DNA from: Nakamurella alba
GTDB lineage: Bacteria > Actinomycetota > Actinomycetes > Mycobacteriales > Nakamurellaceae
Reading direction: 5' to 3'
DNA: 64,000 bases
NCBI RefSeq assembly: GCF_009707545.1
Contig: NZ_WLYK01000001.1
Coordinates: 1,240,001-1,304,000 of the forward strand
In this document: piece after piece, positions 7,311 to 56,206 of the stretch
Layout: every line of letters begins with the position of its first letter
Numbering within the stretch: the stretch's first letter is position 1
Translations under genes and position numbers: made by a program
The notes under the pieces: generated by a model
The model's input: the letters and a program-made list of their open reading frames with translations, nothing else
Database searches by the model: none
Told to the model about the DNA's origin: nothing

Positions 7311-7326
7311 TGCCGATCGGTTGGTA
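7311..7326. promoter_or_regulatory. TetR-type operator, 16-bp layout
   Basis: TGCCGATCGGTTGGTA fits the TACCnAnnnnTnGGTA layout with one arm mismatch. Its right arm merges into a -10-like TAGCTT (7325-7330) that lies six bases before the ATG at 7337, so that gene is probably leaderless. The site also separates the divergent SDR at 7271. Confidence 0.65.
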
Positions 7327-8294: not shown

Positions 8295-8310
8295 CACCAA
8301 ACAACCGGTA
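8295..8310. promoter_or_regulatory. TetR-type operator, 16-bp layout
   Basis: Read on the minus strand the site is TACCGGTTGTTTGGTG, matching TACCnAnnnnTnGGTA except at the inner A. On the plus strand its end overlaps a -10-like TAGATA (8309-8314) about 50 bases before the substrate-binding protein gene at 8362. It would control the importer operon. Confidence 0.65.
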
Positions 8311-15435: not shown

Positions 15436-15451
15436 TACCTATTGGTTGGTA
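15436..15451. promoter_or_regulatory. TetR-type operator, 16-bp layout
   Basis: TACCTATTGGTTGGTA has perfect TACC/GGTA arms. The right arm overlaps a -10-like TAGAAT (15450-15455) that ends six bases before ATG 15462, implying a leaderless LLM transcript. It lies in the divergent region with the VOC gene. Confidence 0.7.
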
Positions 15452-19957: not shown

Positions 19958-20332
19958 TCAGGCGCGGGCGGCCTTGACCTGCTTGATGACGGCGTGCGAG
20001 TCGTACCAGGTGGACAGCCGGCTGATCCGGCCGTCGACCAGGTCGAAGACGTCGACGGCGGTGAAGAGGATCGGCGTGCCGCCGTGCAGCTTGCCGACGA
20101 AATCAATCTCCACCACGAGGGTGTCGCCGTCGCCGATCACCCGGGTCGGGGTGTCGACGTGCTCGGCGTACCCGGACAGCACCCGCGGGAAGTACTCCAG
20201 TACCGCGTCCCGGCCGTCGACCACGCCCACGCCGACCGCGGTGAGCACGCCGTCGGCATTCCAGAGATCGGCCATCAGCGACCAGTTCTCGGTGTTGACC
20301 GACTCGAAGTAGCGGTCCAGCAGATCACTCAC
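19958..20332 (-). CDS. NTF2-like/SnoaL-type small protein
   Basis: A 124-residue cone-shaped NTF2-superfamily protein. The helix LLDRYFESVNTENWSLMADLW is followed by the strand pattern ending in DVFDLVDGRISRLSTWYD, which is diagnostic of SnoaL-like, ketosteroid-isomerase-type domains. Candidate roles are isomerase, dehydratase or ring-closing/opening catalyst; active-site residues cannot be assigned. GTG 20332 overlaps the stop of the acyl-CoA ligase (GTGA), so it is translationally coupled to it. Operon order is ligase, this protein, FAD oxidoreductase, OYE-type reductase. Confidence 0.82.
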   Translation of the reverse strand: MSDLLDRYFESVNTENWSLMADLWNADGVLTAVGVGVVDGRDAVLEYFPRVLSGYAEHVDTPTRVIGDGDTLVVEIDFVGKLHGGTPILFTAVDVFDLVDGRISRLSTWYDSHAVIKQVKAARA

Positions 20333-22061: not shown

Positions 22062-22081
22062 TACCATACAGTCGTTTGGTG
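22062..22081. promoter_or_regulatory. TetR-type operator, 20-bp layout
   Basis: TACCATACAGTCGTTTGGTG matches TACCA-n-AC-nnnn-GT-n-TGGTA except at the final base. Together with two flanking bases on the left and one on the right it is identical to the site at 31074. On the minus strand a -10-like TAGATT overlaps its edge about 55 bases before the ligase start at 22002. Confidence 0.75.
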
Positions 22082-23874: not shown

Positions 23875-23894
23875 TACCAATCGGTCGTATGGTA
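23875..23894. promoter_or_regulatory. TetR-type operator, 20-bp layout
   Basis: TACCAATCGGTCGTATGGTA has perfect TACCA/TGGTA arms. Its right end overlaps a -10-like TAGATT (23893-23898) for the rightward carboxyltransferase gene, and its left end lies 20 bases from the start of the leftward biotin carboxylase gene. One site can therefore repress both halves of the carboxylase. Confidence 0.78.
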
Positions 23895-26368: not shown

Positions 26369-27073
26369 TCAGGCCTTGGCGGCCGCGGGGGTGCGGCGGC
26401 GCCGGGCCGGCTTGGGGGCCGGGTCCGGCGGCTCCAGCTCGGCCAGGCCCTTCGCGGTGGCCAGCGAGTGCACGTGCAGATCGGCGAACTGCAGACCGAT
26501 GGTGCGGGCCGGGAACTCGCCGCCGTCGCGGTACCAGCGGTAGATCCAGTTGAGCGAGCCCAGGATGGACAGGGCGCCGATCTTGGCGTCGATCTCCTCG
26601 CGGACCACGCCCTCCCGCTTGCCCTCGACGATGAGGTTGCGGAACACCTGCTGGTAGGAGTGTGCGTCGCCGAGGATCCGGGCGCGGTTCTCGTCGGACA
26701 GCGAGTTCAGCTCGTGCAGGAACACGGTGGTGGAGATCAGGTTCCGGGCGACGTGCTCGATGTGACCGATCACCACCCGCTGCAGCCGGGTCAGCGCGTT
26801 GCCCTCCGTGGCGGCCAGCTTCTCGATGTTCTCGATGCCGGCCCGGTGCACCTCCTCGATGACCGCCACCAGCAGGTCCTGCTTGGACGCGATGTAGTAG
26901 TACACGCTGCCCTTGAGGATGCCGACCCGGTCGGCGAGATCCTGCAGAGAGGCGCCCTGGTAGCCCTTCTCGTAGAAGATCTGGGTCGCCACGGCGACGA
27001 TCTCCTGCCAGCGGTCCTCGCGGGGCTTGCGCTCCACGGGTTTCGCCGCCCCGGCTCGTCCGGACTGGGCCAT
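26369..27073 (-). CDS. TetR-family repressor, paralogue 1
   Basis: A 234-residue TetR regulator. The N-terminal HTH reads ASLQDLADRVGILKGSVYYYIASKQDLL, and a ligand/dimer domain contains TVFLHELNSLS and LGSLNWIYRWYRDGGEFPA. The tail is rich in Pro, Arg and Ala. It is clearly related to the TetR at 32904, with near-identical recognition helix (KGSxYYYI) and matching C-domain motifs. The ATG at 27073 directly precedes the basic N-terminal arm. A 16-bp-layout operator lies 63 bases upstream over a TATAGT -10 box, indicating autorepression. It probably senses an acyl-CoA intermediate; this is inference. Confidence 0.9.
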   Translation of the reverse strand: MAQSGRAGAAKPVERKPREDRWQEIVAVATQIFYEKGYQGASLQDLADRVGILKGSVYYYIASKQDLLVAVIEEVHRAGIENIEKLAATEGNALTRLQRVVIGHIEHVARNLISTTVFLHELNSLSDENRARILGDAHSYQQVFRNLIVEGKREGVVREEIDAKIGALSILGSLNWIYRWYRDGGEFPARTIGLQFADLHVHSLATAKGLAELEPPDPAPKPARRRRTPAAAKA

Positions 27074-27135
27074 GCCAACCCCCTGGGTCGCGATGGACGA
27101 ACGCCCTGGTGGTGCTCGTTTGCCTGCGGAGACTA

Positions 27136-27151
27136 TACCGATTGGTTGGTG
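27136..27151. promoter_or_regulatory. TetR-type operator, 16-bp layout (autoregulatory)
   Basis: TACCGATTGGTTGGTG lies upstream of the leftward TetR gene. On the minus strand the TACC end overlaps a strong -10-like TATAGT. The right flank faces the rightward racemase-like operon, which has its own 20-bp site at 27211. Confidence 0.7.
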
Positions 27152-27210
27152 GATCCCGCGGAAGCGCCGTGACGGCGGCCGCACGGCTGGCGTCCGCACC
27201 GTCTGGCATC

Positions 27211-27230
27211 TACCATACAGTCGGTAGGTA
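27211..27230. promoter_or_regulatory. TetR-type operator, 20-bp layout
   Basis: TACCATACAGTCGGTAGGTA has perfect outer arms and shares its first 13 bases with the sites at 22062 and 31074. A -10-like TACAGT (27216-27221) lies inside it. It controls the operon starting near 27258. Confidence 0.76.
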
Positions 27231-27257
27231 ACCCGGGACGGAAAGGGAGTGGGCCGG

Positions 27258-28340
27258 TTGACCTGGAAACCGTTGCGCGGCATCAGAATCGTCGACCTGA
27301 CGCGGATGCTGCCCGGTGGCACGGCCACGCTGCTGCTCGCCGATCTCGGTGCCGACGTGGTGAAGGTCGAGCACCCCACCGGGGACGACACCCGATACCT
27401 GCACCCGCGGGTCGGCGCGGACTCGTCCGTCCAGCACCAGTACCTGGACCGTGGGAAGGCCTCGGTACGGGTCGATCTCAAGACCGCACACGGCCGGCAG
27501 CAGGTGCTGGACCTGTGCCGGGACGCCGACGCCGTGATCGAGAGCTTCCGGCCGGGCGTGGCGGACCGGCTCGGCATCGGGCACGCCGACATCCGGGCGG
27601 TGCGCCCGCAGATCGTCTTCCTCTCGCTCACCGGGTACGGGCAGGAGGGGCCGCGGTCGCGGTTCGCCGGGCACGACCTCAACTTCATGTCGGTGGCCGG
27701 GATCACCGAGGGCATCACCCCGACCATGCCGGCCGACGTGGCCGGCGGGATGATCGCCGCGCTGGGCATCGTGTCCGGCGTGATGGCCTCGCGGCACTCG
27801 GGAACCGGTGTGCACATCGATCTCTCGCTCACCGACGCGGCCCTGGTGCTGGCCGGGCAGCAGGTCGCGGAACGGTTGGGCGAGCTGGCCACCGGGGAGG
27901 AGATCCGCACGCCGCTGTACGGCACGCACCCGTGTTACCAGGTGTACCGCTGCCAGGACGGCCGGCTGCTCAGCCTCGGAGCGATCGAGCCGAAGTTCTG
28001 GGTGCGGATCACCGAGCTGCTGGGCCGCCCGGACTGGGTGGACCGACAGGACGACGGTGGCCTGATCACCGAGCTCACGGTGCTGTTCGCCACCCGGCCA
28101 CTGGATCACTGGGTGGAGTTGCTGGACGGGCCGGACACCTGCGTGACCGGGGTGGCCACCGCGGCCGACCTGCTGGCCGACCCGCACCTGTCGGCGCGCC
28201 GGTCGCTGGTGCAGCACGACACCCCCGCGGGCCCGGTCTGGCAGCCGGCCCCGCCGCTGCGGCTGGTCGCGCCGGCGCCGGTCACCGAAATGTCCACGCA
28301 GAGTGATTCAACGCAGAGAGAGGCGGTCCCGTCACCGTGA
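27258..28340 (+). CDS. CaiB/BaiF family protein, alpha-methylacyl-CoA racemase-like
   Basis: A 360-residue class III CoA-transferase-fold protein. It contains the residue set of alpha-methylacyl-CoA racemases: FRPG Arg98, AGHDLN His139, ADVAGG Asp160 and GAIEPKFW Glu244. The GAIEPxF block is characteristic of racemases rather than formyl-CoA transferases. It would epimerise a 2-methylacyl-CoA so that a stereospecific dehydrogenase can act. I chose TTG 27258 because GGGAG (27245-27249) is eight bases away; the GTG at 27249 would overlap that ribosome-binding site. It is the first gene behind the operator at 27211 and overlaps the next gene by GTGA. Confidence 0.82.
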   Translation: MTWKPLRGIRIVDLTRMLPGGTATLLLADLGADVVKVEHPTGDDTRYLHPRVGADSSVQHQYLDRGKASVRVDLKTAHGRQQVLDLCRDADAVIESFRPGVADRLGIGHADIRAVRPQIVFLSLTGYGQEGPRSRFAGHDLNFMSVAGITEGITPTMPADVAGGMIAALGIVSGVMASRHSGTGVHIDLSLTDAALVLAGQQVAERLGELATGEEIRTPLYGTHPCYQVYRCQDGRLLSLGAIEPKFWVRITELLGRPDWVDRQDDGGLITELTVLFATRPLDHWVELLDGPDTCVTGVATAADLLADPHLSARRSLVQHDTPAGPVWQPAPPLRLVAPAPVTEMSTQSDSTQREAVPSP

Positions 28341-28702
28341 CACCCGAACACCCGCACCTGATGGTGGTCCTCGCCAACGCGACCTCGCCGGAGGTCGCCG
28401 AGGACTTCAGCCGCTGGTACAGCGAGACGCACGTGCCGGAGGTGCTGGCCAACTTGGACGCACTGGCCTGTGCCCGCCGGTACCAGCTGTCCGCGGAGCA
28501 GATGCCCGGCGCCGCACCGGGTTTCCGGTTCCTCGCGCTCTACGGCATCGAGGCCGGCCGGGTGGCGGAGGCGCGGGACGCGATCATCGGCCAACGGGAG
28601 GAACGGGCGGAGGCGCTGGCCGCCGGCCGGAAGCCGAAGGTGTCGATCGTGCCCGAGCTGGCGCCCGATATCACCGTCACGTTCTACGACGCCGTGACCT
28701 GA
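28337..28702 (+). CDS. Small dimeric alpha/beta-barrel-like protein
   Basis: A 121-residue protein starting HPHLMVVLANATSPEVAEDF, with the RWYSETHVPEVLAN motif typical of ferredoxin-like dimeric alpha/beta barrels (EthD-like and related). A helix ending in DAIIGQREERAEAL is followed by a final strand DITVTFYDAV. Family members include small oxygenases, isomerases and accessory proteins; no catalytic assignment is possible. It is translationally coupled to the racemase-like gene (GTGA). Its last 26 bases overlap the 3' end of the convergent crotonase. Confidence 0.72.
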   Translation: MTPEHPHLMVVLANATSPEVAEDFSRWYSETHVPEVLANLDALACARRYQLSAEQMPGAAPGFRFLALYGIEAGRVAEARDAIIGQREERAEALAAGRKPKVSIVPELAPDITVTFYDAVT

Positions 28703-29441
28703 AGCCGTCCACCGCGGCCCGGTGCTCGGCGGTGCCCCAGAGCAGGGTGACCGCCTCGACCGACTCGGCGAAACCGTCGTGGGTGTCGCGGTGCAGGAAG
28801 GCCTTGCCGACCTGCACCGCCACCGACGGGTGCTGCGCGATCTCGGCGGCGATGTCCAGGGCCGCGTCGACCAGGTCGGCGTCGGGCACGACGTCGACGA
28901 CAAATCCGGCGGTCCGCGCGGTGTCCGCATCGATGATGCGGCCGGTGCTCACCAGCAGGTTGGTCCACTGCCGGCCGAGCACCTGCGGGCCGCGGACGAT
29001 GCCCCATCCCGGGGTGAGGCCGATGGACACCTCGCGGAAGGCGAACCGGGCGGATGTCCCGGCCACGGCGATGTCGCAGGCCAGGGTGAGTTCGGCGCCA
29101 CCGCCGTAGGCGATGCCGTTGACCGCGCCGATCACCGGTTTCGTGCAGCGCTCCAGGGCGCAGAAGGCGTCGTAGACGGACCGGTTGTGCCGCCGGACGT
29201 CATCGGTGTCCCCGCCGGCGGCGATCCGGTGGAAGCTGTCGATGTCGCCCCCGGCCGAGAACGCCCGCCCCGCACCGGTGATCACCGCGGCCCTGACCTC
29301 CTTGTCGGCGGACAGGTCCGCCATGACGGCGACCAGCTCGGCGAAGAACTGCGGGTCCATGGCGTTCAGCTTCTCCGGCCGGTCCATGGTCAGCAGGGCG
29401 ACACCCGGGCGCGGCATGGTGCGGACGATGCGGTCAGACAC
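28677..29441 (-). CDS. Enoyl-CoA hydratase/isomerase (crotonase), paralogue B
   Basis: A 254-residue crotonase. FSAGGDIDSF and GIAYGGGAELTLACDI give the CoA-binding and oxyanion features. The Glu of GGGAELT and the Glu of FREVSIGL, in place of the usual PE, keep both catalytic carboxylates. The core VRGPQVLGRQWTN matches crotonase A. It ends in a short Arg-rich tail. GTG 29441 overlaps the ligase stop by eight bases, so it forms a two-gene operon with the CaiC-like ligase, driven by the operator at 31074. Confidence 0.88.
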   Translation of the reverse strand: MSDRIVRTMPRPGVALLTMDRPEKLNAMDPQFFAELVAVMADLSADKEVRAAVITGAGRAFSAGGDIDSFHRIAAGGDTDDVRRHNRSVYDAFCALERCTKPVIGAVNGIAYGGGAELTLACDIAVAGTSARFAFREVSIGLTPGWGIVRGPQVLGRQWTNLLVSTGRIIDADTARTAGFVVDVVPDADLVDAALDIAAEIAQHPSVAVQVGKAFLHRDTHDGFAESVEAVTLLWGTAEHRAAVDGFRSRRRRT

Positions 29442-31023
29442 CGGTGGCCTCCCGGTCCCAGGTGTCGGCGGTGACGCCGGTGGCCCGCAGCCGGAACTTC
29501 TCGGTCCGCTGGCTGGGGGTGAGCGGCAACTCGCCGACCAGTCGGACGTACCGGGGCAAGGCCTGGGCGGTGAGCCGGCCGGTGCAGTACTCCAGCACGT
29601 CGGCCGGTGTCAGCGGGACGTCCGGCACCGGTACCACCGAGATCATCACCTCGCTCTCGGAGAGCTCGGAGGGCACCGCGTAGGCGGCCACCCGCTCCAC
29701 CGCCGGATGCCCCTGCACCACCCGCTCGATCTCCCAGGTGGAGATGTTCTCGCCGCGCCGCCGGATGGTGTCCGACATGCGATCCAGGAAGTGCACGAAG
29801 CCGTCCGCGTCCATCCGGCCGCGGTCCCCGGTGTGGAACCACAGGTTCCGCCAGGCCGCCACGGTGGCCTCCGGCTTGCCCAGGTAACCGCGGAAGATCC
29901 AGCCGGCGGCGTTGGGGCGCACCACGATCTCGCCGTCGGCGCCGACCGGCACCGGATCGTCGTGCTCGTCGACGATCTGCACCGAGTACTGCGGCGACGG
30001 CCGGCCGCCGGCGCCGATCCGGCGGGCGTGCGGCGGGTTGTTGCAGACGTTGGACACCTCGGTGCTGCCGTACACCTCGGTGAGGGTGACGCCGAACCGT
30101 TCCTCGAAGGGGGCGAAGATCTCGGCCGGGCAGGGGGCGCCGAAGGCCACCCGCACGGCGTGGTCCCGGTCGTCCGCGCGGGCCGGCAGCTGGAACAGGA
30201 TCGCCATCATCGCGCCCTGGTAGTTGAAGGCGGTGATCGCCTCGTCCCGGCAGATGTCCCAGAACCGGCTCGCCGAGAAGCGCCGGTGCATCACGAGTCC
30301 CGCCCCGGTCTCGATCGCGGCGCCGACGCTGGTGTAGCGGGCGTTGCTGTGGAAGAGCGGGAAGACGGAGTAGAGCCGGTCGGCCGGGGTGTAGCCCATC
30401 AGGCCGGAGGTGTGCCGGATCAGGTGCAGGTTGAACCGGTGCGTGAGCAGCACGCCCTTCGGCGGCCCGGTGGTCCCCGAGGTGTACAGCACCGTGCTGA
30501 TGTCGTCCGGCGCGACCTCCGGTAGCGGCGCCGTCGGCCCGTCGGCCAGGCCGGCGAGATCCCGGACGGTGACCCGGCCATCGGCGACCGTGGTGGTGGG
30601 GACCGCCCGCTCCGGGTCGTGCACCAGCACCGTGGTGAGCAGCGGCAGTTCCGGCGCCTCGGCCAGCACCTGGTCGAGGAACTCCACGTCGCAGACCACC
30701 ACGCGCGCACCGGCGTCGGCGATCAGGTAGCGCAGCACCACTGCCCCGCTCGCAACGTTCAGCGGAACGTCCACGATGCCCGCCCGGGCCAGCGCGAACC
30801 ACAGCCGCAGCATGGTGGTGCTGGTGCGCATCAGCAGGCAGACCGGGGCACCGCGCTCGGGTTCCAGTGCGGCGACGGCGGGGGCCAGGGTCGCCGACTC
30901 CGCCGCCAGTCGTCGGGCGCTCGTCGCCACACCGTCGATCCGCCAGGCACTGTCGGGCAGGTCGCGGGCGGCCGCCTCGTCCAACCAGGTCCCGATCGTG
31001 GTCGCGGTCGTCGACTCGGTCAC
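29434..31023 (-). CDS. Acyl-CoA ligase (CaiC-like), A10 lysine replaced
   Basis: A 529-residue AMP-forming ligase. The P-loop VLYTSGTTGPPKGVLLTH, EVYGSTEVSN, WFHTGDRG and the hinge FLDRMSDTIRRRGENIS are intact. At the A10 position, where most relatives have T-G-K, this protein reads TPSQRTEKFRLR, which places Arg at the catalytic lysine. I recall similar Arg-containing variants in carnitine-CoA-ligase-like proteins, so this may be a subfamily trait. It is not one of the three ITEAPR paralogues. GTG 31023 is used because GGTGAG lies nine bases upstream; a GTG at 31047 lacks a ribosome-binding site. Confidence 0.87.
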   Translation of the reverse strand: MTESTTATTIGTWLDEAAARDLPDSAWRIDGVATSARRLAAESATLAPAVAALEPERGAPVCLLMRTSTTMLRLWFALARAGIVDVPLNVASGAVVLRYLIADAGARVVVCDVEFLDQVLAEAPELPLLTTVLVHDPERAVPTTTVADGRVTVRDLAGLADGPTAPLPEVAPDDISTVLYTSGTTGPPKGVLLTHRFNLHLIRHTSGLMGYTPADRLYSVFPLFHSNARYTSVGAAIETGAGLVMHRRFSASRFWDICRDEAITAFNYQGAMMAILFQLPARADDRDHAVRVAFGAPCPAEIFAPFEERFGVTLTEVYGSTEVSNVCNNPPHARRIGAGGRPSPQYSVQIVDEHDDPVPVGADGEIVVRPNAAGWIFRGYLGKPEATVAAWRNLWFHTGDRGRMDADGFVHFLDRMSDTIRRRGENISTWEIERVVQGHPAVERVAAYAVPSELSESEVMISVVPVPDVPLTPADVLEYCTGRLTAQALPRYVRLVGELPLTPSQRTEKFRLRATGVTADTWDREATGV

Positions 31024-31073
31024 CGCTGTCTCACCTGCACCTTTCACGACATCGTTGCCGGACCCGGTGTTTC

Positions 31074-31093
31074 TACCATACAGTCGTTTGGTG
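31074..31093. promoter_or_regulatory. TetR-type operator, 20-bp layout
   Basis: TACCATACAGTCGTTTGGTG is identical to the 22062 site. A plus-strand -10-like TACAGT (31079-31084) ends six bases before GTG 31091, and on the minus strand TAGAAA overlaps the left arm for the ligase at 31023. The operator therefore covers both promoters and even the first codon of the rightward gene. Confidence 0.75.
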
Positions 31094-31894
31094 AACTGGT
31101 CCGAACGCATCGTGGTGAACGCGATCTCGCTGTCCGTCGACGGCTCGCTGGAGTCCGAGCTGGCGACCTTCGCCGATCTCGGCGTGCGGCGGATCGGGCT
31201 GTCCCGCGGCAAGATCCACCGGGCCGGCGGCGAGTCCGCGGTGACGATGATCGAGCGGTCCGGGCTGATGGTCGACTACCTGCTGCACCGCAGCCTGTTC
31301 GACCTGCGGGACCCCGCCCGCTGGCCGGACCAGGTCCGGATGGCCTGCCACACCGTCGATCTGGCGGTGGCCATGGGTGTGCCGCAGATCTACCTGACCA
31401 CCGGGACGGCCGGTGACCTGGACCCGGACGAGGCGGTGGACCGGCTGGTGGGTGAGATCCCGCCGGTGGTCGAGCACGCCCGGGCGGCCGGGGTGCAGCT
31501 GCTCTTCGAGACCACCAACGACCACTTCGGCGACATCGACATCCTGCACACGCTGCGCGACACCCTGGCCGTCGCCCGGCGCTGCGGCATCGGGGTGTGT
31601 GTCGACCTGTACGGCTGCTGGGCCGAGCACGGGGTGCGCGCCACCCTCTCCGAGGCCGCACCGCTGATCGGGCTGGTGCAGGTCAGCGACTACGTCTCGG
31701 GGTGTCGCACGATGGACCGGGCGGTGCCGGGCGACGGGGTCATCCCCATCGAGAGACTGTTGCGGCAGGTCCTGGCCGAGGGCTACGCCGGGCAGTTCGA
31801 CCTCGAGCTCTACGGTGACCAGGGGATGCCGGACACCGAGGCGATCAGGCTGTCCATGGACCGGCTGACGGAGATGCTGGAGCGGATCGGATGA
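31091..31894 (+). CDS. Xylose isomerase-like/AP-endonuclease-2-type TIM-barrel protein
   Basis: A 267-residue sugar-isomerase-like TIM barrel. Metal-ligand positions typical of the fold are visible: Glu in LLFETTNDHFG, Asp in VCVDLYGCW, a segment QVSDYV and a terminal Glu in QFDLELYG. Members isomerise or cleave hydroxy-carbonyl compounds. Its role in a CoA pathway is unclear; keto-enol isomerisation is possible. The GTG at 31091 lies six bases after a -10-like box inside the operator, suggesting a leaderless message; GTG codons at 31112 and 31115 are alternatives. It overlaps the metallo-hydrolase gene by ATGA. Confidence 0.78.
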   Translation: MNWSERIVVNAISLSVDGSLESELATFADLGVRRIGLSRGKIHRAGGESAVTMIERSGLMVDYLLHRSLFDLRDPARWPDQVRMACHTVDLAVAMGVPQIYLTTGTAGDLDPDEAVDRLVGEIPPVVEHARAAGVQLLFETTNDHFGDIDILHTLRDTLAVARRCGIGVCVDLYGCWAEHGVRATLSEAAPLIGLVQVSDYVSGCRTMDRAVPGDGVIPIERLLRQVLAEGYAGQFDLELYGDQGMPDTEAIRLSMDRLTEMLERIG

Positions 31895-32907
31895 CAGTGA
31901 CGACGGACTGGCGGACGCCGGGGACCTTCGAGGTGGCGACCGGGGTGCACCGCATCCCGATGCCGATGTCGGACGGCGGGCTGGACACGGTGAACGTGTA
32001 CGCGCTGATCGCCCCGGACGGCATCACCCTGATCGACGGCGGCGAGCACGTGCCGGGTGCGCTGGACCGGTTGGCCGCCGGCCTGGCGCCGCTCGGTGCC
32101 GGGATCGCCGACGTGCGCCGGGTTCTCGTCACCCACGTGCACGTCGACCACTACTCGCTGGCCCCGTCGATCCGGCGGATCAGCGGCGCGGAGGTGGCGA
32201 TGGGTGCGGGGGAACAGCCGACCATCCAGCGGGTCGGTGACCCGGACTTCCCGCAGTGGTCCGAGCAGCACCGGCAGCTGCGCCGCGGCGGCGCCGGCGA
32301 CGTGCTGGAGGGGATCCTCGCCGGCTTCCCCGGCATGGAGAGCGACCCGGCCGACTACCTGCCGCCGGACACCTGGTGGACCGGGCCGACCGACATTCCG
32401 CTCGGAGATGCGGTGCTGCAGGTGATCCCGACGCCGGGCCACACCGCCGGGCACAGCGTGTTCGCGTTGCCGGGGCAGGGACTGATGTTCACCGGCGACC
32501 ACGTGCTGCCGCGGATCACCCCGTCGATCGGATTCGACGCCGCACCCGCGGTGCTGCCGCTGCGCAGCTTCCTGGCCTCGCTGGCCCTGGTGCGGTCCGG
32601 TGCCGACCACCGGATGCTGCCGGCGCACGGACCGGTGACCGACAGCGTGCACCACCGGATCGACGAGCTGGTCGCGCACCACGACGTGCGGCTGGCCGAG
32701 ACCGCGGCGGCGGTGCGCGGCGGGGCCTCGTCGGCACGGGAGGTGGCGGCGCAGCTGGGCTGGACCCGGCACCTCCGGCGGTTCGACGAGCTGACCGTCT
32801 TCAACCGGATGCTCGCGGTCTGCGAGACACTGGCCCACCTCGACCTTCTCGTCGACCGCGGCGAGCTGACGGTCACCGAGGACGAAGGGATCTCCCGGTA
32901 CGCCTAG
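31891..32907 (+). CDS. Metallo-beta-lactamase-fold hydrolase
   Basis: A 338-residue MBL-fold protein. The zinc motif THVHVDHYS (HxHxDH) lies near residue 80. Further ligands lie in PTPGHTAGHSVF and FTGDHVLP, and the terminal His in LPAHGPV. A C-terminal helical/winged segment (REVAAQLGWTR...LAVCETLAHLDLLVDRGEL) matches the lactamase-B C-terminal domain of CoA-thioesterase and lactonase-like members. Likely reactions are thioester or lactone hydrolysis. It is coupled to the TIM-barrel gene by ATGA and meets the convergent TetR 2 gene with a 4-base overlap. Confidence 0.86.
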   Translation: MTVTTDWRTPGTFEVATGVHRIPMPMSDGGLDTVNVYALIAPDGITLIDGGEHVPGALDRLAAGLAPLGAGIADVRRVLVTHVHVDHYSLAPSIRRISGAEVAMGAGEQPTIQRVGDPDFPQWSEQHRQLRRGGAGDVLEGILAGFPGMESDPADYLPPDTWWTGPTDIPLGDAVLQVIPTPGHTAGHSVFALPGQGLMFTGDHVLPRITPSIGFDAAPAVLPLRSFLASLALVRSGADHRMLPAHGPVTDSVHHRIDELVAHHDVRLAETAAAVRGGASSAREVAAQLGWTRHLRRFDELTVFNRMLAVCETLAHLDLLVDRGELTVTEDEGISRYA

Positions 32908-33539
32908 GCGCGTTGCGGCGGCAACCGGAGGCCGTGCAGGGTCAGGTCGGCGATGGTGGCGGCGATGGCGGCGGGCTTCGACTCGCCGTTCGGGGTGAAC
33001 CAGCGGTAGGACCAGTTCAGGGCGCCGAGCAGGGTCAGCGCGGCCAGCGGCGGGTGCACGTCGGGCCGGGCCAGCCCGGTGCGCTGCGCCTCGAGGATCA
33101 GTGTGCGGAGCAGGGTCTGGTACGGGTGCCGGCTGGCCAGCACCTCCTGCCGGCGCGGGACCGGCAGCGACCGCAGCTCGTGCAGGAACACCCGGGTCCA
33201 CCGCAGGTGCGCGCAGATCCAGCCGACATGCCCGTGGATGACCCGCTCCAACCGCTCGAAGGCATCGCCCGGACCGGCGGCGAGACCGGCGACCTCGTCG
33301 AAGAGTTCGTCGTGCGCCGTCCGGATGACGTCGAAGAGCAGGTCCTCCTTGGAGTCGATGTAGTAGTAGAGGCTCCCCTTGAGCAGACCCATCCGGGTGG
33401 CGATCTCCTGCAGCGACGCCTGGTCGTAGCCGCGCTCGTAGAACACGTCGGTGGCGACCTCGAGCATCTGGCTCCGGCGTTCCTCCCGGGTCAACCGCAG
33501 CCGCGGGCCGGTCACAGCCGGTCCTGTCGGCGTCGCCAC
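32904..33539 (-). CDS. TetR-family repressor, paralogue 2
   Basis: A 211-residue TetR regulator. The HTH ASLQEIATRMGLLKGSLYYYIDSKEDLL and the C-domain motifs RVFLHELRSLP and LGALNWSYRWFTPNGES mirror TetR 1 (26369-27073). The near-identical recognition helices predict related operator arms. Unlike TetR 1 it has no operator of its own: its ATG is four bases after the stop of the acyl-CoA ligase, at the end of the five-gene operon driven from 39313. It would thus be made when that operon is on and could provide feedback. Confidence 0.9.
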   Translation of the reverse strand: MATPTGPAVTGPRLRLTREERRSQMLEVATDVFYERGYDQASLQEIATRMGLLKGSLYYYIDSKEDLLFDVIRTAHDELFDEVAGLAAGPGDAFERLERVIHGHVGWICAHLRWTRVFLHELRSLPVPRRQEVLASRHPYQTLLRTLILEAQRTGLARPDVHPPLAALTLLGALNWSYRWFTPNGESKPAAIAATIADLTLHGLRLPPQRA

Positions 33540-33543: not shown

Positions 33544-35187
33544 TCAGACCGAGGTCCGGCGCCGCAGCCGCGGTGCCTCGGTGATGGAGGCCGCGGCCAG
33601 TTCGGCGGCGATCCGCTCGCGCAGCTTCGCCTTCTGGATCTTGGTGCCGGACATCGGCCAGTCGTCGACGAACCGCACGTAGCGCGGCACCTTGAAGGTG
33701 GCCATCCGGTCCAGGCAGTAGGCGATCACGGCGGCCTCCTCCAGCACGCCGCCGGGGGAGAGTTGGACGAAAGCCGCTGCCACCTCGCCGTAGTGGGCGT
33801 CGGGCGCGGCCACCACCTGCACCAGTGCGGCCTCCGGCAGGGCCGCGACGGTGTCCTCGATCTCGGCCGCAGCGACGTTCTCGCCGCCGATCTTGAGCAT
33901 GTCGCCGAGCCGGCTGTGGAAGCGGAACCGGCCGTCCGGGTCGCGCTCCAGCAGGTCGCCGGAGCGGTACCAGCCGTCGGCGTCGATCCGGTCCGCGGTG
34001 GTCCTCGGGTCGCGGTAGTACCGCAGGAACCGGGACACCCCGCGGAACACGAACTCTCCCGGGGTGAGATCCGGTAGGTCGACGCCGGTCTCGGGATCGA
34101 TGATCTTCGCCTCCATGCCGTCGACCGGTCGGCCGGCCCAGATCGCCCGCACCTCCGCCGGGTCCTCGGCGTGGCCGACGCAGATGAAGCCGGCACCCTC
34201 GGTGCTGCCGGTGCAGGAGATCTGGGTCGCGCCCGGCAACCGGTCCTGCATCGCCCGCATCCGCTCCGGGGTGCCGACGTTGATCACGGTGCGCAGCCGG
34301 GACAGGTCGGTGCCGGCGAAGTCGGGGTGGTTGAGCACCGGCATCCAGATGGTCTCGAAGGCCGGGAAGGCCACCGTGACCCGCTCCGACTCCAGTTGCG
34401 CCAGCGCGGATCCGGCCTCGAAGCGACCGCAGTGCACCATGGTGCCGCCGGCGGCGAGCGAGGCAAAGAGCACGTCGAAGCCGCCGACGTGGAAGAAGGT
34501 GAGCGGGGTCCAGAACCGGTCGCCGGGGACGAGTCCGACCCGGGTGGCGAGCGAGGCGCCTTGCCGGACGATCGAGGTGTGGGTGTGCACGCAGCCGCGC
34601 GGATTCGAGGTGGTGCCCGAGGTGTACAGGATGATGAACTCGTCCTCCGGGCCGACCTGCGCGGTCAGCGCGGCGACGCTTGCGTCCAGCTCGGAGGTGT
34701 CGGCCGCGGCGACCACCGTCTCCCAGTCGGTGAGGCCGGACTCCGAACCGCCGACCGCGACCACCCGGCGCAGCGATGCGGCGGCCGGTACCCGCACCCG
34801 GCTGCCGTCGGTGCCGGCCAGCCCGGGGAACGCCTCGACCAGCTGCTCGACGTGATCGGCACCGGCCAGCAGCAGCCGCATGTCGGAGTGGTCGACGATG
34901 TAGGCGATCTCGCGGGCCCGCAGTCGGTTGTTGATCGGCACCGCGACGGCGCCGATGGACGCGGCACCGAGGATCATTGCCACGACCGGGATGTCGTTCG
35001 GCAGTATGGCGCCGACGTGGTCGCCCGGGCCGATCCCGCAGGCCACGAAGGCGCGGGCGTAGGAGCGGCTGAGGTCGATGAGTCCGGTGACGGTCCAGCG
35101 GCCGGTGGGGAAGGCGAGTGCCTCGTGGTCGTCGGCGGCGGCGAGGTCGAGCAGGGCGGGGACGGACAGACCTTCGGGTGCGATCAT
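33544..35187 (-). CDS. Acyl-CoA ligase (ANL superfamily), paralogue 2
   Basis: A 547-residue AMP-forming ligase. It has the P-loop IILYTSGTTSNPRGCVHTH (Arg at the usual Lys of PKG), CTGSTEGAGF, the hinge HSRLGDMLKIGGENVA and the A10 lysine in SGTKIQK. It shares the WPMSGTKI...ITEAPR C-terminus with the ligases at 20329 and 37534. ATG 35187 is chosen because AGGAAG is six bases upstream; a TTG two codons earlier abuts that site. It follows the acyl-CoA dehydrogenase by 72 bases and is tightly linked to TetR 2. Confidence 0.89.
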   Translation of the reverse strand: MIAPEGLSVPALLDLAAADDHEALAFPTGRWTVTGLIDLSRSYARAFVACGIGPGDHVGAILPNDIPVVAMILGAASIGAVAVPINNRLRAREIAYIVDHSDMRLLLAGADHVEQLVEAFPGLAGTDGSRVRVPAAASLRRVVAVGGSESGLTDWETVVAAADTSELDASVAALTAQVGPEDEFIILYTSGTTSNPRGCVHTHTSIVRQGASLATRVGLVPGDRFWTPLTFFHVGGFDVLFASLAAGGTMVHCGRFEAGSALAQLESERVTVAFPAFETIWMPVLNHPDFAGTDLSRLRTVINVGTPERMRAMQDRLPGATQISCTGSTEGAGFICVGHAEDPAEVRAIWAGRPVDGMEAKIIDPETGVDLPDLTPGEFVFRGVSRFLRYYRDPRTTADRIDADGWYRSGDLLERDPDGRFRFHSRLGDMLKIGGENVAAAEIEDTVAALPEAALVQVVAAPDAHYGEVAAAFVQLSPGGVLEEAAVIAYCLDRMATFKVPRYVRFVDDWPMSGTKIQKAKLRERIAAELAAASITEAPRLRRRTSV

Positions 35188-35259
35188 CGGCAACTTCCTG
35201 ACACGTCGTCGTGGTGGCTGGTGCTGGTGTTCGTGCGGGGTGTTCGCGGGTGCTGCCCG

Positions 35260-36447
35260 TCAGAACGAACGGGGGAGGCCGAGATTCTCCCCGATGTAGT
35301 TGCGGGCCATCTCGTTGGTGATGGGCCCGATGCGGTACAGCCGGGCGTCCCGCCAGTAGCGCTGCATGTTGTACTCCTGCGCGTAGCCGTAGCCGCCGAG
35401 GATCTGGATCCCCTGGTCGGCGGCCTCGACCGCGTATTCCGAGGCCAGGCACTTGGCCATGGTCGCCTCCACCCCGCACGGCCGGCCCTGCTGCTCCAGC
35501 CAGGCGGCGCGGTGGGTGTGCAGGGTCGCGGTGTCCAGCTTCATCGCCATGTCTGCGATCGAGTGCTGGATGCTCTGCATCTGGCCGATCGGCCGGCCGA
35601 AGGCGTGGCGCTGGCCGGCGTACTCCAGGGCGTCCTCCAGCACCGCGCGCAGGATGCCGGTGCACATGGCGGCGACCATGATGCGTTCGCTGTTGAGCGA
35701 TCCGGTGATCTGCCGCCAGCCCTGGTCGACCTCGCCGAGCAGGTCCTCGGCCGGCACGAAGACGTCGTCGAAGGACACCTCGCAGGAGCCGAGCGAGCGC
35801 ATGCCGATCTTCGGGATCGGGGTGGCGGTGAGGCCGGAGGAGTCGCGCCGGACCAGGAAGACCGACAGGCCGCGGGAGGGCTTGTCGGACGGGCTGGTCC
35901 GGACGGTGACCATGATCCGGTCCGCGACGTGCGCGGTGGTGGACCAGATCTTGTTGCCGCGCAACAGGTACCCGCCCTCGACCGGGGTGGCGGTGGAGCG
36001 CATGGCCCGCAGCACGTCGGTGCCGCCGCCGGGCTCGGTGAGGGCGAAGGCGAACCGCATGGTGCCGTCGGCGATCCTCGGCAGGTATTCGGCGCGCTGC
36101 TCCGGGGTGCCGTGGGCGAGCACGGCGTGCGCGGCGGACCAGACGTTGATCCCCCACAGCCAGGCCAGACCGGCCAGCGAGCGGGACAGCTCCTCGCAGA
36201 CGATGACCTGGTCGATGATGTCGCCGCCCTGGCCGCCGTACTCCTCGGGGATGCCGATGCCGTTGAGCCCGGCGGCGGCGATGGCGGCGGCCAGATCGGC
36301 CGGGAACTCCTCGCTCGCCTCAAGGTCTCGCGCCTTGAGCTTCGGGCACTCCCGGTCGACGAAGTCGCGGACCATCTGCCGCAGCATCTGCTGCTCGGGG
36401 GTCGGGTCGAACCACATGCCGGTGGTGGGTGCTGCGGTGACGGTCAT
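35260..36447 (-). CDS. Acyl-CoA dehydrogenase with relocated catalytic Glu
   Basis: A 395-residue acyl-CoA dehydrogenase. FAD-binding (FALTEPGGGTD, NKIWSTTAHVADRIMV), substrate-loop and C-terminal (ILGGYGYAQEYNMQRYWRDAR) motifs are all present. At the usual base position, the Glu of Y-E-G-T in most members, it reads YRIGPITNEM, with Pro375. A Glu instead occurs at residue 254 (LNSERIMVAA), the helix-G position used by isovaleryl-CoA and long-chain acyl-CoA dehydrogenases. A branched or bulky substrate is suggested. ATG 36447 has AGGAG upstream and overlaps the LLM stop (ATGA). Confidence 0.9.
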   Translation of the reverse strand: MTVTAAPTTGMWFDPTPEQQMLRQMVRDFVDRECPKLKARDLEASEEFPADLAAAIAAAGLNGIGIPEEYGGQGGDIIDQVIVCEELSRSLAGLAWLWGINVWSAAHAVLAHGTPEQRAEYLPRIADGTMRFAFALTEPGGGTDVLRAMRSTATPVEGGYLLRGNKIWSTTAHVADRIMVTVRTSPSDKPSRGLSVFLVRRDSSGLTATPIPKIGMRSLGSCEVSFDDVFVPAEDLLGEVDQGWRQITGSLNSERIMVAAMCTGILRAVLEDALEYAGQRHAFGRPIGQMQSIQHSIADMAMKLDTATLHTHRAAWLEQQGRPCGVEATMAKCLASEYAVEAADQGIQILGGYGYAQEYNMQRYWRDARLYRIGPITNEMARNYIGENLGLPRSF

Positions 36448-37502
36448 CGAGTGGCTCCTGCGTGGGTGACGGGCGCCGGGGCGCCCAGGTCGGCGAGCGG
36501 CCCGATGACCTGCTCGCCCATCATCGCGATGGCGTCGAGGGTCTCGGCGTGGCCGGGGCCGCCGGGCTGGCGCATCCGGATGGCCACGTAGTCCAGTCCG
36601 GCCCGTTCGTGCCAGTCGGTGAGCTCGGCGCGTAGGTCCTCGCCGGTGCCGAAGAGGAAACGCCCGGGAGCGAGCACGTCGGGGGTGAAGTTGGCCCGGT
36701 CGGCGACGTCGTCCACCCACGGCTCGAACTCGCGGTGGTAGACGCCGACGTTGTAGTAGAGCCGGTGCACCGCCATCGCGCCGGGCAGCCAGTGCTGCTC
36801 GCACTCGGCCCGGCTGTTCGCGATCCAGCCGTCCCGGAACGCCGCGACCCGCGGGGTGCGGCCGAGGGTGGCGGCCTGCTCACGGAACCGGGCAGCGAGC
36901 CGGGCCACCACGTCGATGTGCCGCTGCGGGTCGGCCACCCAGACGTCGGCCTGTTCGGCGGCCAGCCGCATGCCCTTCTCGCCGTGCGCGCCCATCCACA
37001 GCTCGGGCGGGATCCCGTCGTAGGGCAGCGGTGTCACCTGGCCGGCCCAGTGGCCGAACTCGCCGTCGATGTCGAACGGCTCGCCCGACCAGCAGGCCCG
37101 GATCACCTCGAGGTACTCCCGGGTCATCCGGAAGCGCGCGGGCCGGTCGACGCCGTAGAGCCGGAAGTCGGCGGGCACGTGTGCACTGCCGATGCCGAGC
37201 AGGGCGCGGCCGCGGGTGAGGTGGCCGAGCATCAGCGCGTCCTCGGCGAGCCGCACCGGGTGGTGCAGCGGGCCGGCGACGACGGCCTGGCCCACCCGGA
37301 TCCGCCGGGTGCCGGCCACCAGGTTGGCGCCGACCAGCAGCGGGGACACCACGCCGCCGGCCCGGGTGGAGTGGAACTCCGGCAGGAAGAACGCGTCGAA
37401 GCCGGCCGCGTCGGCGGCCCTGACCTCGGCCCGCAGCTGCTCCAGGTGTTCGTCCAGCGGGGTGCCCGCGGACTGTATCGGCAGGACGATGCCGAAACGC
37501 AT
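36444..37502 (-). CDS. LLM-class flavin/F420-dependent oxidoreductase
   Basis: A 352-residue luciferase-like TIM-barrel oxidoreductase. Family features are RFGIVLPIQSAGT, FLPEFHSTRAGG, HHPVRLAEDALMLGHLTRGR, LGIGSAHVPADFRLYGV and WMGAHGEKGMRLAAEQADVWV. It is distinct from the two LLM proteins at 12950 and 15462 and closer to alkanal-monooxygenase-like members. FMN versus F420 use cannot be decided. AAGGAGA precedes ATG 37502. It lies between an acyl-CoA ligase and the acyl-CoA dehydrogenase, so the substrate may be a CoA thioester or its free acid. Confidence 0.87.
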   Translation of the reverse strand: MRFGIVLPIQSAGTPLDEHLEQLRAEVRAADAAGFDAFFLPEFHSTRAGGVVSPLLVGANLVAGTRRIRVGQAVVAGPLHHPVRLAEDALMLGHLTRGRALLGIGSAHVPADFRLYGVDRPARFRMTREYLEVIRACWSGEPFDIDGEFGHWAGQVTPLPYDGIPPELWMGAHGEKGMRLAAEQADVWVADPQRHIDVVARLAARFREQAATLGRTPRVAAFRDGWIANSRAECEQHWLPGAMAVHRLYYNVGVYHREFEPWVDDVADRANFTPDVLAPGRFLFGTGEDLRAELTDWHERAGLDYVAIRMRQPGGPGHAETLDAIAMMGEQVIGPLADLGAPAPVTHAGATR

Positions 37503-37533
37503 GGCTCTCCTTCTCGTCTCAGGCTTGGTGGTA

Positions 37534-39228
37534 TCAGGCTCTGGTCGGTGTCGACGGGGTGCTGATCCGCGGCGCCTCGGTGATGCCGGCGGCGCGCAGC
37601 TCGTCGGCGATCCGCTCACGGAGTTCGACCTTGCGGATCTTGGTGCCCGACATCGGCCACTCCCGGACGAATCTCACGTAGCGGGGCACCCGGTAGGTGG
37701 CGATCCGGCCGACGCAGTGGTCGATCAGCTCCTGCTCGGTGACCTCGGCGCCCGGCACGGTCTGCACGAAAGCGGCGGGCACCTCGCCGTAGTAGGCGTC
37801 CGGGGCGGCGACCACCGCGACCAGGGCAACGGCGGGGTGGTCGATCAGGTGGCCCTCGACCTCCGCCGCTGCGACGTTCTCACCACCCACCTTGAGCATG
37901 TCCTTGATCCGGGACAAGAAGGTCAGCCGGCCGTCGGCGTCCAGCACCACCCGGTCGCCGGAGTGGTACCAGCCGCCCTCGTCGACCGCGGCGGCGGTGA
38001 GCTGCGGGTCGCGGAAGTAGCCGTCGAAGGCGCCGGGGCCGCGGAACAGCAGTTCGCCCGGGGTGCCGGTGGGGAGGTCGGCGCCGGTGTCCGGGTCGAT
38101 CACCCGGACCTCCATGCCGGGCATCGGGTGACCGCCGGTGGTCATCGCGTGCTCCGGGTCGTCGTCCAGCCGGTTCAGCGAGAGGAAGGCGCAGGACTCG
38201 GTCATCGCGACGCAGGACACGTGGGTGACGCCGGGCAGCCGGGATGCCATGACGCGCAAACGTTCCGGCACGCCGACCGCCATCACCACCCGGATCCGGG
38301 AGAGGTCGTGGTCGGCGAAGTCCGGGCGGTCCAGTACCGGCATCCAGATGGTCTCGAACGCTGCGAGGGCGATGGTGACCCGCTCGGCCTCCAGGTACGG
38401 CAGGGTGGTCAGTGGGTCGAAGAACCCCGGGTGGACGAACGGCGCGCCGGCCGCGATGCTGCTGAACATGAAGGTGAGCCCGCCGCCGTGGAAGAGCGGG
38501 ATCGCGGTCCAGACCCGGTCGTCCGCGGTGAGCCGCAGCCGGGTGCCGATGCCCTGCGCGGTGCGCACCACCGCCTCGTGACTGAGCAGCGCGCCCTTCG
38601 GGGCCGAGGTGGTGCCGGAGGTGTAGACCATCAGCGCCGGGTCGCGGACCTTCACCCCGGCCCGACGGGTGTCCAGAGTGACGATATCGATCGTCTCGCC
38701 GGCCGCCTCGAACTCCTCCGTGGACAGCGCGGCCCAGGAGGTGTCACCCGGCGTCGCGCCGAGTACTACCACGGTCTCCAGCTCCGGCGCGCCGGACAGC
38801 CGGCCCGCCGTCGGCGGGAAGGTGGCGGTCAGCAGCGAGACGAAGTCCGGGGTGCCGGGGGCGGCGACAGCGGTGACCAGCACCCGCATCCCGGAGTGCA
38901 CGACGATCTGCTCGAGCTCGACCTGCTTGAAGCGCGCGTTGACCGGGACCGCGATCGCGCCGATCCGGGCCGTGGCGAACAGGCCGGCGACCAGGTCGGC
39001 GGAAGCGGGCAGCAACAGCCCGACGCGATCCCCGCGCCGCACGCCGAGGGCGAGCAGGCCGCGGGCCCAGCGATCGGCCCGCTCGTCGAGATCACGGTAG
39101 CTGCAGCGGTGGTCGGGGAAGACGAGCGCCTCGCCGGCGGGATCCGCAGCCGCGCGCCGGCCCAGCATGTCGCCCACGGTGGTGACGGCGATCCAGCCGT
39201 TCTCCGCGGCCTGCGGGACACTCGGCAT
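37534..39228 (-). CDS. Acyl-CoA ligase (ANL superfamily), paralogue 3
   Basis: A 564-residue AMP-forming ligase. It has the P-loop LMVYTSGTTSAPKGALLSH, the substrate-pocket segment FETIWMPVLDRPDF (shared almost exactly with the other two paralogues), VAMTESCAF, the hinge FLSRIKDMLKVGGENVA and the A10 lysine SGTKIRK. The C-terminus again carries WPMSGTKI...ITEAPR. ATG 39228 has GGGAGG upstream. It is the first gene of the leftward operon ligase, LLM, acyl-CoA dehydrogenase, ligase, TetR 2, behind the operator at 39313. Confidence 0.9.
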   Translation of the reverse strand: MPSVPQAAENGWIAVTTVGDMLGRRAAADPAGEALVFPDHRCSYRDLDERADRWARGLLALGVRRGDRVGLLLPASADLVAGLFATARIGAIAVPVNARFKQVELEQIVVHSGMRVLVTAVAAPGTPDFVSLLTATFPPTAGRLSGAPELETVVVLGATPGDTSWAALSTEEFEAAGETIDIVTLDTRRAGVKVRDPALMVYTSGTTSAPKGALLSHEAVVRTAQGIGTRLRLTADDRVWTAIPLFHGGGLTFMFSSIAAGAPFVHPGFFDPLTTLPYLEAERVTIALAAFETIWMPVLDRPDFADHDLSRIRVVMAVGVPERLRVMASRLPGVTHVSCVAMTESCAFLSLNRLDDDPEHAMTTGGHPMPGMEVRVIDPDTGADLPTGTPGELLFRGPGAFDGYFRDPQLTAAAVDEGGWYHSGDRVVLDADGRLTFLSRIKDMLKVGGENVAAAEVEGHLIDHPAVALVAVVAAPDAYYGEVPAAFVQTVPGAEVTEQELIDHCVGRIATYRVPRYVRFVREWPMSGTKIRKVELRERIADELRAAGITEAPRISTPSTPTRA

Positions 39229-39312: not shown

Positions 39313-39332
39313 TGACAAACGATCGGTTGGTG
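39313..39332. promoter_or_regulatory. TetR-type operator, 20-bp layout
   Basis: TGACAAACGATCGGTTGGTG keeps the right arm and most inner positions of the 20-bp layout, but has two mismatches in the left TACCA arm. A plus-strand -10-like TGGAAT follows, pointing to the VOC gene at 39385. The leftward five-gene operon starts 84 bases away. Confidence 0.65.
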
Positions 39333-42229: not shown

Positions 42230-42249
42230 TAGCAGACGGTCGTTTGGTA
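42230..42249. promoter_or_regulatory. TetR-type operator, 20-bp layout
   Basis: TAGCAGACGGTCGTTTGGTA differs from the 20-bp pattern at one outer-arm base. It overlaps the -10-like TACGGT (read on the minus strand) of the IpdA-like operon by two bases. It is only nine bases from the 3' end of the surface-protein gene and marks the end of the regulon. Confidence 0.73.
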
Positions 42250-56195: not shown

Positions 56196-56206
56196 GCGGT
56201 TGTGGA

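What the first reader, a model, noticed from the sequence alone, without database searches (positions are those of the whole stretch)
26369..33539. Two paralogous TetR repressors facing two operator spacings
TetR 1 (26369-27073) and TetR 2 (32904-33539) have nearly the same recognition helix (KGSVYYYI/KGSLYYYI) and matching ligand-domain motifs. TetR 1 sits behind a 16-bp site, suggesting autorepression. TetR 2 has no own operator and is the last gene of a five-gene operon behind a 20-bp site. A split of the two spacings between the two proteins, giving a two-stage switch with feedback, is a testable design.
Basis: partly seen in the sequence, partly recalled or inferred. Interest (0 to 1): 0.7.

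Follow-up and report, generated by a model that had tools for sequence, protein, structure and literature searches.

The report
Paired TetR repressors, two operator lengths
A bacterium, probably an actinobacterium, seems to control a large breakdown pathway with two related repressors and one DNA word set at two fixed spacings; the two spacings recur in relatives, but nothing yet shows that each repressor owns one of them.

Summary
TetR1 (26369-27073, -) and TetR2 (32904-33539, -) are about 45% identical TetR_C_24 regulators inside an acyl-CoA catabolic cluster. Six 20-bp sites (TACCAWAC-N4-GTWTGGTA type) and three clear plus one weak 16-bp sites (TACC-N8-GGTA type) lie at its promoters. The spacing pair is real: in 51 unselected loci outside this genome the half-site pairs at lengths 16 (21 hits) and 20 (25), against 2.9 and 2.3 in shuffles and 0-7 at other lengths. 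The proposed split of spacings between the proteins is not shown. (a) TetR1 and TetR2 have the same base-reading helix residues. (b) A same-order genome with one TetR of this group (58% to TetR1, 50% to TetR2) has only 20-bp sites in 38 kb, which speaks against tying TetR1 to 16 bp. (c) Site class varies at one homologous promoter, and six relative sites hold both frames. (d) Published tables for Thermus PaaR show one TetR protein binding both spacings at nanomolar affinity. A cross-repressing split stays possible (about 0.16).

The parts
26369..27073 (-). TetR1, TetR_C_24 regulator, 234 aa
   Evidence: relative in G049 58% identical
32904..33539 (-). TetR2, TetR_C_24 regulator, 211 aa, last gene of a five-gene run
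   Evidence: 4 bp from the CoA-ligase frame ending at 33544
27136..27151 (.). 16-bp site TACCGATTGGTTGGTG in the TetR1 upstream region, overlapping a TATAGT hexamer of the - strand by 2 bases
27211..27230 (.). 20-bp site TACCATACAGTCGGTAGGTA before CaiB; its first 16 bases also fit the 16-bp frame
39313..39332 (.). 20-bp site TGACAAACGATCGGTTGGTG between the TetR2 run (-) and a glyoxalase-fold gene (+); covers the -35 hexamer of the TetR2 run
22062..22081 (.). 20-bp site TACCATACAGTCGTTTGGTG before the CoA ligase 20329-21969 (-)
23875..23894 (.). 20-bp site between biotin carboxylase (-) and carboxyltransferase (+); a 20-bp site is at the same place in G049
31074..31093 (.). 20-bp site between CoA ligase 29434-31023 (-) and a TIM-barrel gene (+)
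42230..42249 (.). 20-bp site TAGCAGACGGTCGTTTGGTA, about 10 bp before the likely start (42219) of a CoA-transferase gene (-)
15436..15451 (.). 16-bp site TACCTATTGGTTGGTA between a glyoxalase-fold gene (-) and a luciferase-like oxidoreductase (+)
7311..7326 (.). 16-bp site TGCCGATCGGTTGGTA between a short-chain dehydrogenase (-) and a FAS1-dehydratase-like gene (+)
8295..8310 (.). weak 16-bp site CACCAAACAACCGGTA before a branched-chain-type ABC importer
   Evidence: poor symmetry
33544..39228 (-). other four genes of the TetR2 run: CoA ligase, luciferase-like oxidoreductase, acyl-CoA dehydrogenase, CoA ligase
27249..28340 (+). CaiB-type CoA-transferase divergent from TetR1

Best explanation
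This is the control layer of an acyl-CoA catabolic cluster. TetR1 and TetR2 are PaaR/PfmR-like dimeric repressors that read one half-site, TACCAAAC-like. They sit close to or on promoter elements, so a bound dimer (or overlapping dimers) blocks transcription until a pathway acyl-CoA ester releases it. The two proteins most likely overlap in what they bind, and differ mainly in inducer or affinity. Both genes lie near the sites, giving negative feedback. Shown: genes, sites, two spacings, recurrence in relatives, overlap with a promoter-like -35 hexamer at the TetR2 run. Inferred: repression, acyl-CoA inducer, overlap in binding.
For: Spacing peaks at 16 and 20 only, own genome excluded: 51 unselected loci 21 and 25 hits against 2.9 and 2.3; 28 selected loci 21 and 20 against 1.65 and 1.45, 34 distinct places there: 15 only-16, 13 only-20, 6 both. 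TetR1 and TetR2 have the same helix residues at the positions that DarR uses for bases and most backbone contacts (Lys44, Gly45, Tyr48, Tyr49, Ser53, Lys54; Thr43 is Leu here). One PaaR protein binds AACAAACGTTTGTT (no spacer, KD 5.4 nM) and its native AACAAACGACCGTT (4-bp spacer, KD 3.1 nM). Site class varies at homologous flavin oxidoreductase promoters: 16 in L039, L095 and (3 mismatches) L097, 20 in L045, both in L098. G049, with one TetR of the group, has two 20-bp sites. TetR3, a third paralog, follows P450 and reductase genes behind a 20-bp site with 3 mismatches.
Against: Some promoters keep their class: carboxylase 20 bp here and in G049 (1 of 5 biotin-carboxylase and 1 of 2 carboxyltransferase homologs had a 20-bp site), glyoxalase-fold gene 16 bp here and in G389 (1 of 3), which would fit separate readers. 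On the tree the four relatives that I labelled as having a 16-bp site before their own TetR fall on one branch (93/95) with 20 unlabelled rows, and 10 of 11 labelled 20-bp on another (99/88). Those ten have helix [RK]GSLYAH[IV], not KGSxYYYI, so helix and class may be linked after all. A 4-bp change turns the half-sites by about 0.4 turn, so one dimer in one register cannot read both. In the PaaR assay single-base changes moved KD at most about 3-fold (5.4 to 16.6 nM), so it may not tell spacings apart. PaaR's place in this subfamily was not tested. No binding data for TetR1 or TetR2 were seen.
Confidence: 0.48

Rival explanations
1. Split readers: TetR1 reads 20-bp sites and TetR2 reads 16-bp sites (or the reverse). 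With TetR1 on 20 bp, TetR1 represses the TetR2 run and TetR2 represses TetR1, a cross-repressing pair over uptake/first oxidation (16 bp) and CoA-ester steps (20 bp).
For: Site classes sort roughly by function in the window: importer (weak site), luciferase-like oxidoreductase, dehydrogenase/dehydratase and TetR1 on 16 bp; CoA ligases, carboxylase, CoA-transferases and TetR2 on 20 bp. The G049 relative of TetR1 goes with 20 bp. Label clustering on the tree.
Against: Same base-reading helix residues; PaaR binds both; class varies at the flavin oxidoreductase promoter; both frames in 6 of 34 relative sites; G049's protein is also 50% identical to TetR2, so it may speak for both.
Confidence: 0.27
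2. The 16-bp class belongs to another TetR encoded elsewhere and only the 20-bp class is the regulon of TetR1/TetR2.
For: 8 of 12 places of the 16-bp pattern lie outside the window, one of them, C5:38287, just before a weak TetR-like match at C5:38346 (E 9.4e-4). The genome has 11 TetR_C_24 matches over the cut-off.
Against: 4 of 12 genome-wide places lie in this 64 kb, and the same class recurs in loci with TetR1/2-like genes.
Confidence: 0.15
3. The window's 16-bp sites are PfmR-like cores (ACCGATCGGT) centred 2 bp off the TACC-N8-GGTA centre, so both classes share one centre and differ only in the outer right arm.
For: Sites 7311, 15436 and 27136 keep 4 of 5 pairs about the shifted centre, against 5, 5 and 4 of 8 about the 16-bp centre; each differs from the PfmR consensus TACCGACCGNTNGGTN at 2 of 13 fixed positions. 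PfmR selected consensus CTGACCGATCGGTCAG.
Against: Relative sites such as TACCAACCGTTTGGTA and TACCAATCGATTGGTA are symmetric about the 16-bp centre.
Confidence: 0.1

Closest known systems
PaaR (TTHA0973), Thermus thermophilus
   Same: TetR repressor of an acyl-CoA pathway; native consensus CNAACGNNCGTTNG resembles the core of the 20-bp class (1-3 of 10 fixed positions differ); selected consensus AACnAACGTTnGTT resembles the 16-bp class of relatives
   Different: Phenylacetate genes; no exact PaaR core among the six window sites; TACC outer arms are not in its consensus; sequence relationship not tested here
PfmR (TTHB023, PDB 3vpr), Thermus thermophilus
   Same: Second-best solved relative of both proteins (E 1.2e-21 and 5e-22; 3vpr named as PfmR); early consensus TACCGACCGNTNGGTN is 16 bp with TACC/GGT arms
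   Different: Helix 3 reads SKAALYHHF, not LKGSxYYYI; linked to fatty-acid genes
DarR (Mycobacterium/Rhodococcus)
   Same: Lys-Gly..Tyr-Tyr...Ser-Lys helix set; two dimers on overlapping palindromes in a 20-bp site
   Different: c-di-AMP ligand; ATACT-N4-AGTAT operator; the TXC-N6-GXA geometry that I worked out from the published mutants does not fit these sites
MbdR (Azoarcus)
   Same: TetR repressor released by the first CoA-ester of its pathway
   Different: Operator ATAC-N10-GTAT; weak sequence match (4uds)
KstR2 and AibR
   Same: Acyl-CoA-linked TetR repressors (recalled) among the solved relatives (the name AibR for 5k7f is recalled)
   Different: Different pathways; operators not compared here

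Membership tests
TetR family, TetR_C_24 (PF17932) | TetR_N and TetR_C_24 domains over the curated cut-offs | tested here: met
   both proteins
PaaR | Operator core CNAACGNNCGTTNG | tested here: inconclusive
   best of six 20-bp sites differ at 1 of 10 fixed positions (39313, 42230), the others at 2-3
PaaR | Controls paa genes | not tested
   no Pfam or NCBIfam hit listed for the cluster genes pointed to a PaaA-type oxygenase, but neither the whole window nor the genome was searched for paa genes
PaaR | Phenylacetyl-CoA as effector | not testable with these tools
   needs a binding assay
PfmR | 16-bp operator TACCGACCGNTNGGTN | tested here: inconclusive
   7311, 15436, 27136 differ at 2 and 8295 at 3 of 13 fixed positions
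FadR (Bacillus type), NF053878 | Score over equivalog cut-off 200 bits | tested here: not met
   64.3 and 52.1 bits
KstR, NF033703 | Score over equivalog cut-off 280 bits | tested here: not met
   22.7 and 19.1 bits
FasR, NF053731 | Score over equivalog cut-off 330 bits | tested here: not met
   45.5 and 56.1 bits
DarR-like dimer-of-dimers binding | Two dimers on overlapping palindromes | not testable with these tools
   sites with both frames exist (6 of 34) but stoichiometry is unknown

The most novel reading that the evidence does not exclude
Operator spacing is an address: TetR1 reads the 20-bp class and TetR2 the 16-bp class with the same half-site, each represses the other's gene, and the pair forms a double-negative switch that orders uptake and first oxidation against CoA-ester degradation. 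Sites with both frames (27211) would be where the two compete. The recurrence of both spacings in relatives, some with two or three such TetRs in one locus, would make this a general design.
Probability: 0.16. Interest if true: 0.75.

Novelty: new variant of a known kind. Interest (0 to 1): 0.45.

Why it matters
How paralogous repressors with the same recognition helix stay apart, or do not, is an open question in bacterial regulation. Here one half-site is used at two spacings, 4 bp apart, in loci of named Actinomycetota and unnamed same-phylum genomes. Published Thermus PaaR data contain the same two spacings; the sections read compare the two consensus sequences but do not remark on the spacing. 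That turns a design question into a simple binding test on a small set of natural operators.

Tried and rejected
Recognition-helix likeness as evidence for a special pair: rejected, 31 of 66 rows share KGS[LV]YYY[IF]. Of the 11 rows labelled 20-bp only the G049 protein has that helix; all 4 rows labelled 16-bp have it.

Tree and labels: 15 duplicate small loci were skipped and one row under 150 residues was dropped. I labelled by hand from the sites within about 260 bp of each TetR start; several 20-bp labels rest on 3 mismatches (L085, L100, L103, L106; for L077 and L082 the 24-bp frame scored better; L104 only in the 24-bp frame), while L035_9920, L049_9893 and L051_198, with 3-mismatch hits, stayed unlabelled.

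Strict whole-phylum spacing test with perfect half-sites at <=1 mismatch: little power. 20 bp in 4 of 336 genomes (two are TetR carriers, G306 and G389; the other two, of one genus, share one sequence), 16 bp in 0 of 336, 18-bp control in 1 of 336. A looser 20-bp pattern in 12 chosen genomes hit G000, G049, G306 and G389, but not the carriers G039 and G400, and hit G022, which is no carrier.

Loose spacing count: at <=3 mismatches no clear peak in the 37 loci L028-L064 (48 at 16, 43 at 20, 49 at 19); at <=2, 11 and 16 against 0-6 elsewhere, with 2 and 6 in the reversed control. One search used 28 of the 54 non-window loci, chosen by hand; left out were L040-L044, L047, L050-L064, L102, L107 and own-genome L088-L090. 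Some of these have TetRs as close as the ones kept (L040, L043, L044, L047 37-41% to TetR1; L102 41% to TetR2). The repeat on all 51 non-own loci keeps both peaks. The part of L048 that overlaps L049 was cut.

Several TetRs against one per locus: no clean rule. G306 shows both classes beside one close TetR (a second, 30% identical, is 59 kb away).

Homologous promoters: most had no site, e.g. 0 of 4 luciferase-like, 0 of 10 dehydrogenase, 1 of 4 dehydratase-like (3 mismatches) rows. For genes without a window site of their own only rows with hits were printed, so misses there are not counted. Three window reference proteins (two CoA ligases, one CoA-transferase) were cut in the wrong frame and are not used.

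Regex search for TetR helices near 10 own-genome sites outside the window found none, though one search has a weak TetR-like match by C5:38287, so the regex missed cases.

Plasmid search with TetR1: 4 records, all under 41% identity; not followed.

Paper searches on two spacings in the TetR family were seen as listings only and showed no title or abstract start on it; listed papers on AmtR and AtsR were not opened. The AibR and PfmR papers were not held. Structure prediction was not run: a single-chain model says nothing on spacing.

Full report
Setting. The window is bases 1240001-1304000 of contig 1 of a 6.05-Mb, 29-contig genome, 70% G+C. The reported region lies in a cluster with CoA ligases, a biotin-dependent acyl-CoA carboxylase, hydratases, CoA-transferases, an acyl-CoA dehydrogenase, luciferase-like oxidoreductases, a flavin oxidoreductase and a branched-chain-type importer. 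None of the 16 same-genus genomes listed (G001-G016) has a match to TetR2 at E <= 1e-35 (up to 20 candidates scored per genome) or to TetR1 (7 scored), 4 of 150 genomes match, one of them the window's own. The regulators are thus accessory in the genus. The spread of the whole cluster was not tested.

The two regulators. They fail the score cut-offs for FadR, KstR and FasR. A tree of 66 rows puts TetR1, TetR2, a third own paralog (TetR3, C1:318723) and TetRs from G049 and G039 together (94/89). Inside it TetR1 pairs with the G049 protein (85/24, weak; 58% identity, against 50% between that protein and TetR2). They are paralogs in the wide sense; a recent twin pair is unlikely.

The sites. Twenty-base sites at 22062, 23875, 27211, 31074 and 42230 match TACCATAC-N4-GTTTGGTA with at most two mismatches (the scan at <=3 expects 0.01 rows); a sixth at 39313 matches the half-site pair with two mismatches. 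Sixteen-base sites are at 7311, 15436 and 27136, with a weak one at 8295 and a double-frame one at 27211. Elsewhere in the genome a 20-bp site lies at C1:1767153 between a SnoaL-like and a short-chain dehydrogenase gene, and one with 3 mismatches at C1:315781, 30 bp before a P450 gene that is followed by a reductase and TetR3.

Placement. The 39313 site covers the -35 hexamer of TTGTCA-17-TAGAGT facing the TetR2 run. No sigma-70-like pair was found in the TetR1-CaiB gap, though a TATAGT hexamer overlaps the edge of the 27136 site. Both regulator genes thus sit near sites of this type, which fits feedback.

Are two spacings real? A half-site taken from the window (YACCAWMC) was paired with its reverse complement over all total lengths from 12 to 32. 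In all 51 loci outside this genome that one search scanned (804,186 bases), at <=2 mismatches, there are 21 hits at 16 and 25 at 20, against 2.9 and 2.3 in 10 shuffles; other lengths give 0-7 against 0-3.5. At <=1 mismatch the figures are 5 and 6 against 0.2 and 0.1, and 0-1 elsewhere. In 28 hand-picked loci they are 21 and 20 against 1.65 and 1.45, with 0-5 elsewhere. Merged, those 28 loci hold 34 places: 15 only-16, 13 only-20 and 6 with both frames; control pairs of lengths give 5-7 places with at most one double. Anchoring on one half-site only (37 loci, 77 anchors, both strands), GGTR follows at offsets 12 (7 times) and 16 (6), at 8 (3), 9 (4) and 15 (1), and at none of 10, 11, 13, 14 and 17-20. 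At <=3 mismatches the peaks drown in background.

Who reads which? Four lines bear on it. First, TetR1 and TetR2 share the helix LKGS[LV]YYYI, found in 31 of 66 rows; all four relatives labelled with a 16-bp site before their own TetR have it, and so does the G049 protein, which has a 20-bp site. The other ten rows labelled 20-bp have [RK]GSLYAH[IV]. The DarR structure paper assigns base reading to Lys44 and Gly45 and backbone contacts to Thr43, Tyr48, Tyr49, Ser53 and Lys54 among others (section read); both proteins have the Lys-Gly, Tyr-Tyr and Ser-Lys residues in that order and spacing, with Leu for Thr43. Second, G049, same order and another family, has one TetR of this group (its other matches are 32% and 26% identical). 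Its carboxylase promoter (70.7% and 52% identical proteins) and its TetR promoter carry 20-bp sites, and no 16-bp site at <=2 mismatches was found in the 38 kb read. This favours TetR1 on 20 bp, but may hold for TetR2 too. Third, class is kept at some homologous promoters (carboxylase 20 bp, glyoxalase-fold gene 16 bp; one relative each) and not at another (flavin oxidoreductase gene: 16 in L039, L095 and L097, 20 in L045, both in L098); most homologs had no site. Fourth, on the tree the four 16-bp rows fall on one branch (93/95) with 20 unlabelled rows, and ten 20-bp rows on another (99/88), which hints at class preferences by subclade.

The precedent. For Thermus PaaR, Tables 1 and 3 of PMC6651687 (sections on consensus, genome sites, discussion and tables read) give KD 5.4 nM for AACAAACGTTTGTT, where the AAC and GTT arms touch, and 3.1 nM for its own promoter site AACAAACGACCGTT, where four bases part them. 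These resemble the cores of the 16-bp and 20-bp classes. Single-base changes in that table move KD about 3-fold at most, so the assay may be tolerant. The text notes that two published consensus sequences share elements; the sections read do not mention the spacing. PfmR has a 16-bp consensus TACCGACCGNTNGGTN from three promoters and CTGACCGATCGGTCAG by selection (PMC7022988, passages). One TetR protein can therefore use both spacings, at least in vitro. Whether PaaR belongs to the same subfamily was not tested, as its sequence was not at hand.

Conclusion. The claim that each repressor owns one spacing is open and, on balance, less likely than overlapping use. If a split exists, the G049 evidence leans to TetR1 on 20 bp; with a 20-bp site before the TetR2 run and a 16-bp site before TetR1 that would give mutual repression, not two separate self-repressing stages.

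Noticed in passing
G000 C1:315781-319316 (L088 7782-11332): Third paralog TetR3 follows a P450 and a ferredoxin-reductase-like gene behind a 20-bp site (3 mismatches), 0.92 Mb from the window.
   Followed up: partly
G000 C1:1767153 (L090 9154): An outlying 20-bp site between a SnoaL-like gene and a short-chain dehydrogenase, about 0.46 Mb away: a likely distant member of the regulon.
   Followed up: partly
L077, L081, L082, L085, L100, L103, L104, L105, L106: Nine loci of one unnamed same-phylum family (f23, genomes 2.2-3.6 Mb) keep a CAAAC-N4-GTTTG type site just before a related TetR gene, close to the Thermus PaaR promoter site.
   Followed up: partly
L031 5171, L035 5365, L049 17326, L095 12438, L096 13808 and 16797, window 27211: Sites built of tandem TACC/AACC-like blocks that fit a 16-bp and a 20-bp frame at once.
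   Followed up: partly
window 52001-60000: Lower G+C (0.655-0.665 against about 0.69-0.73) around an rpiR-type regulator, an EamA transporter and frames without Pfam match, with tRNA-Arg at 58056-58130.
   Followed up: no
G389 C1:1607143-1627993 (L094-L095): Three related TetR genes within 21 kb of one catabolic cluster, two of them adjacent, with a 16-bp site before each of the adjacent pair.
   Followed up: partly
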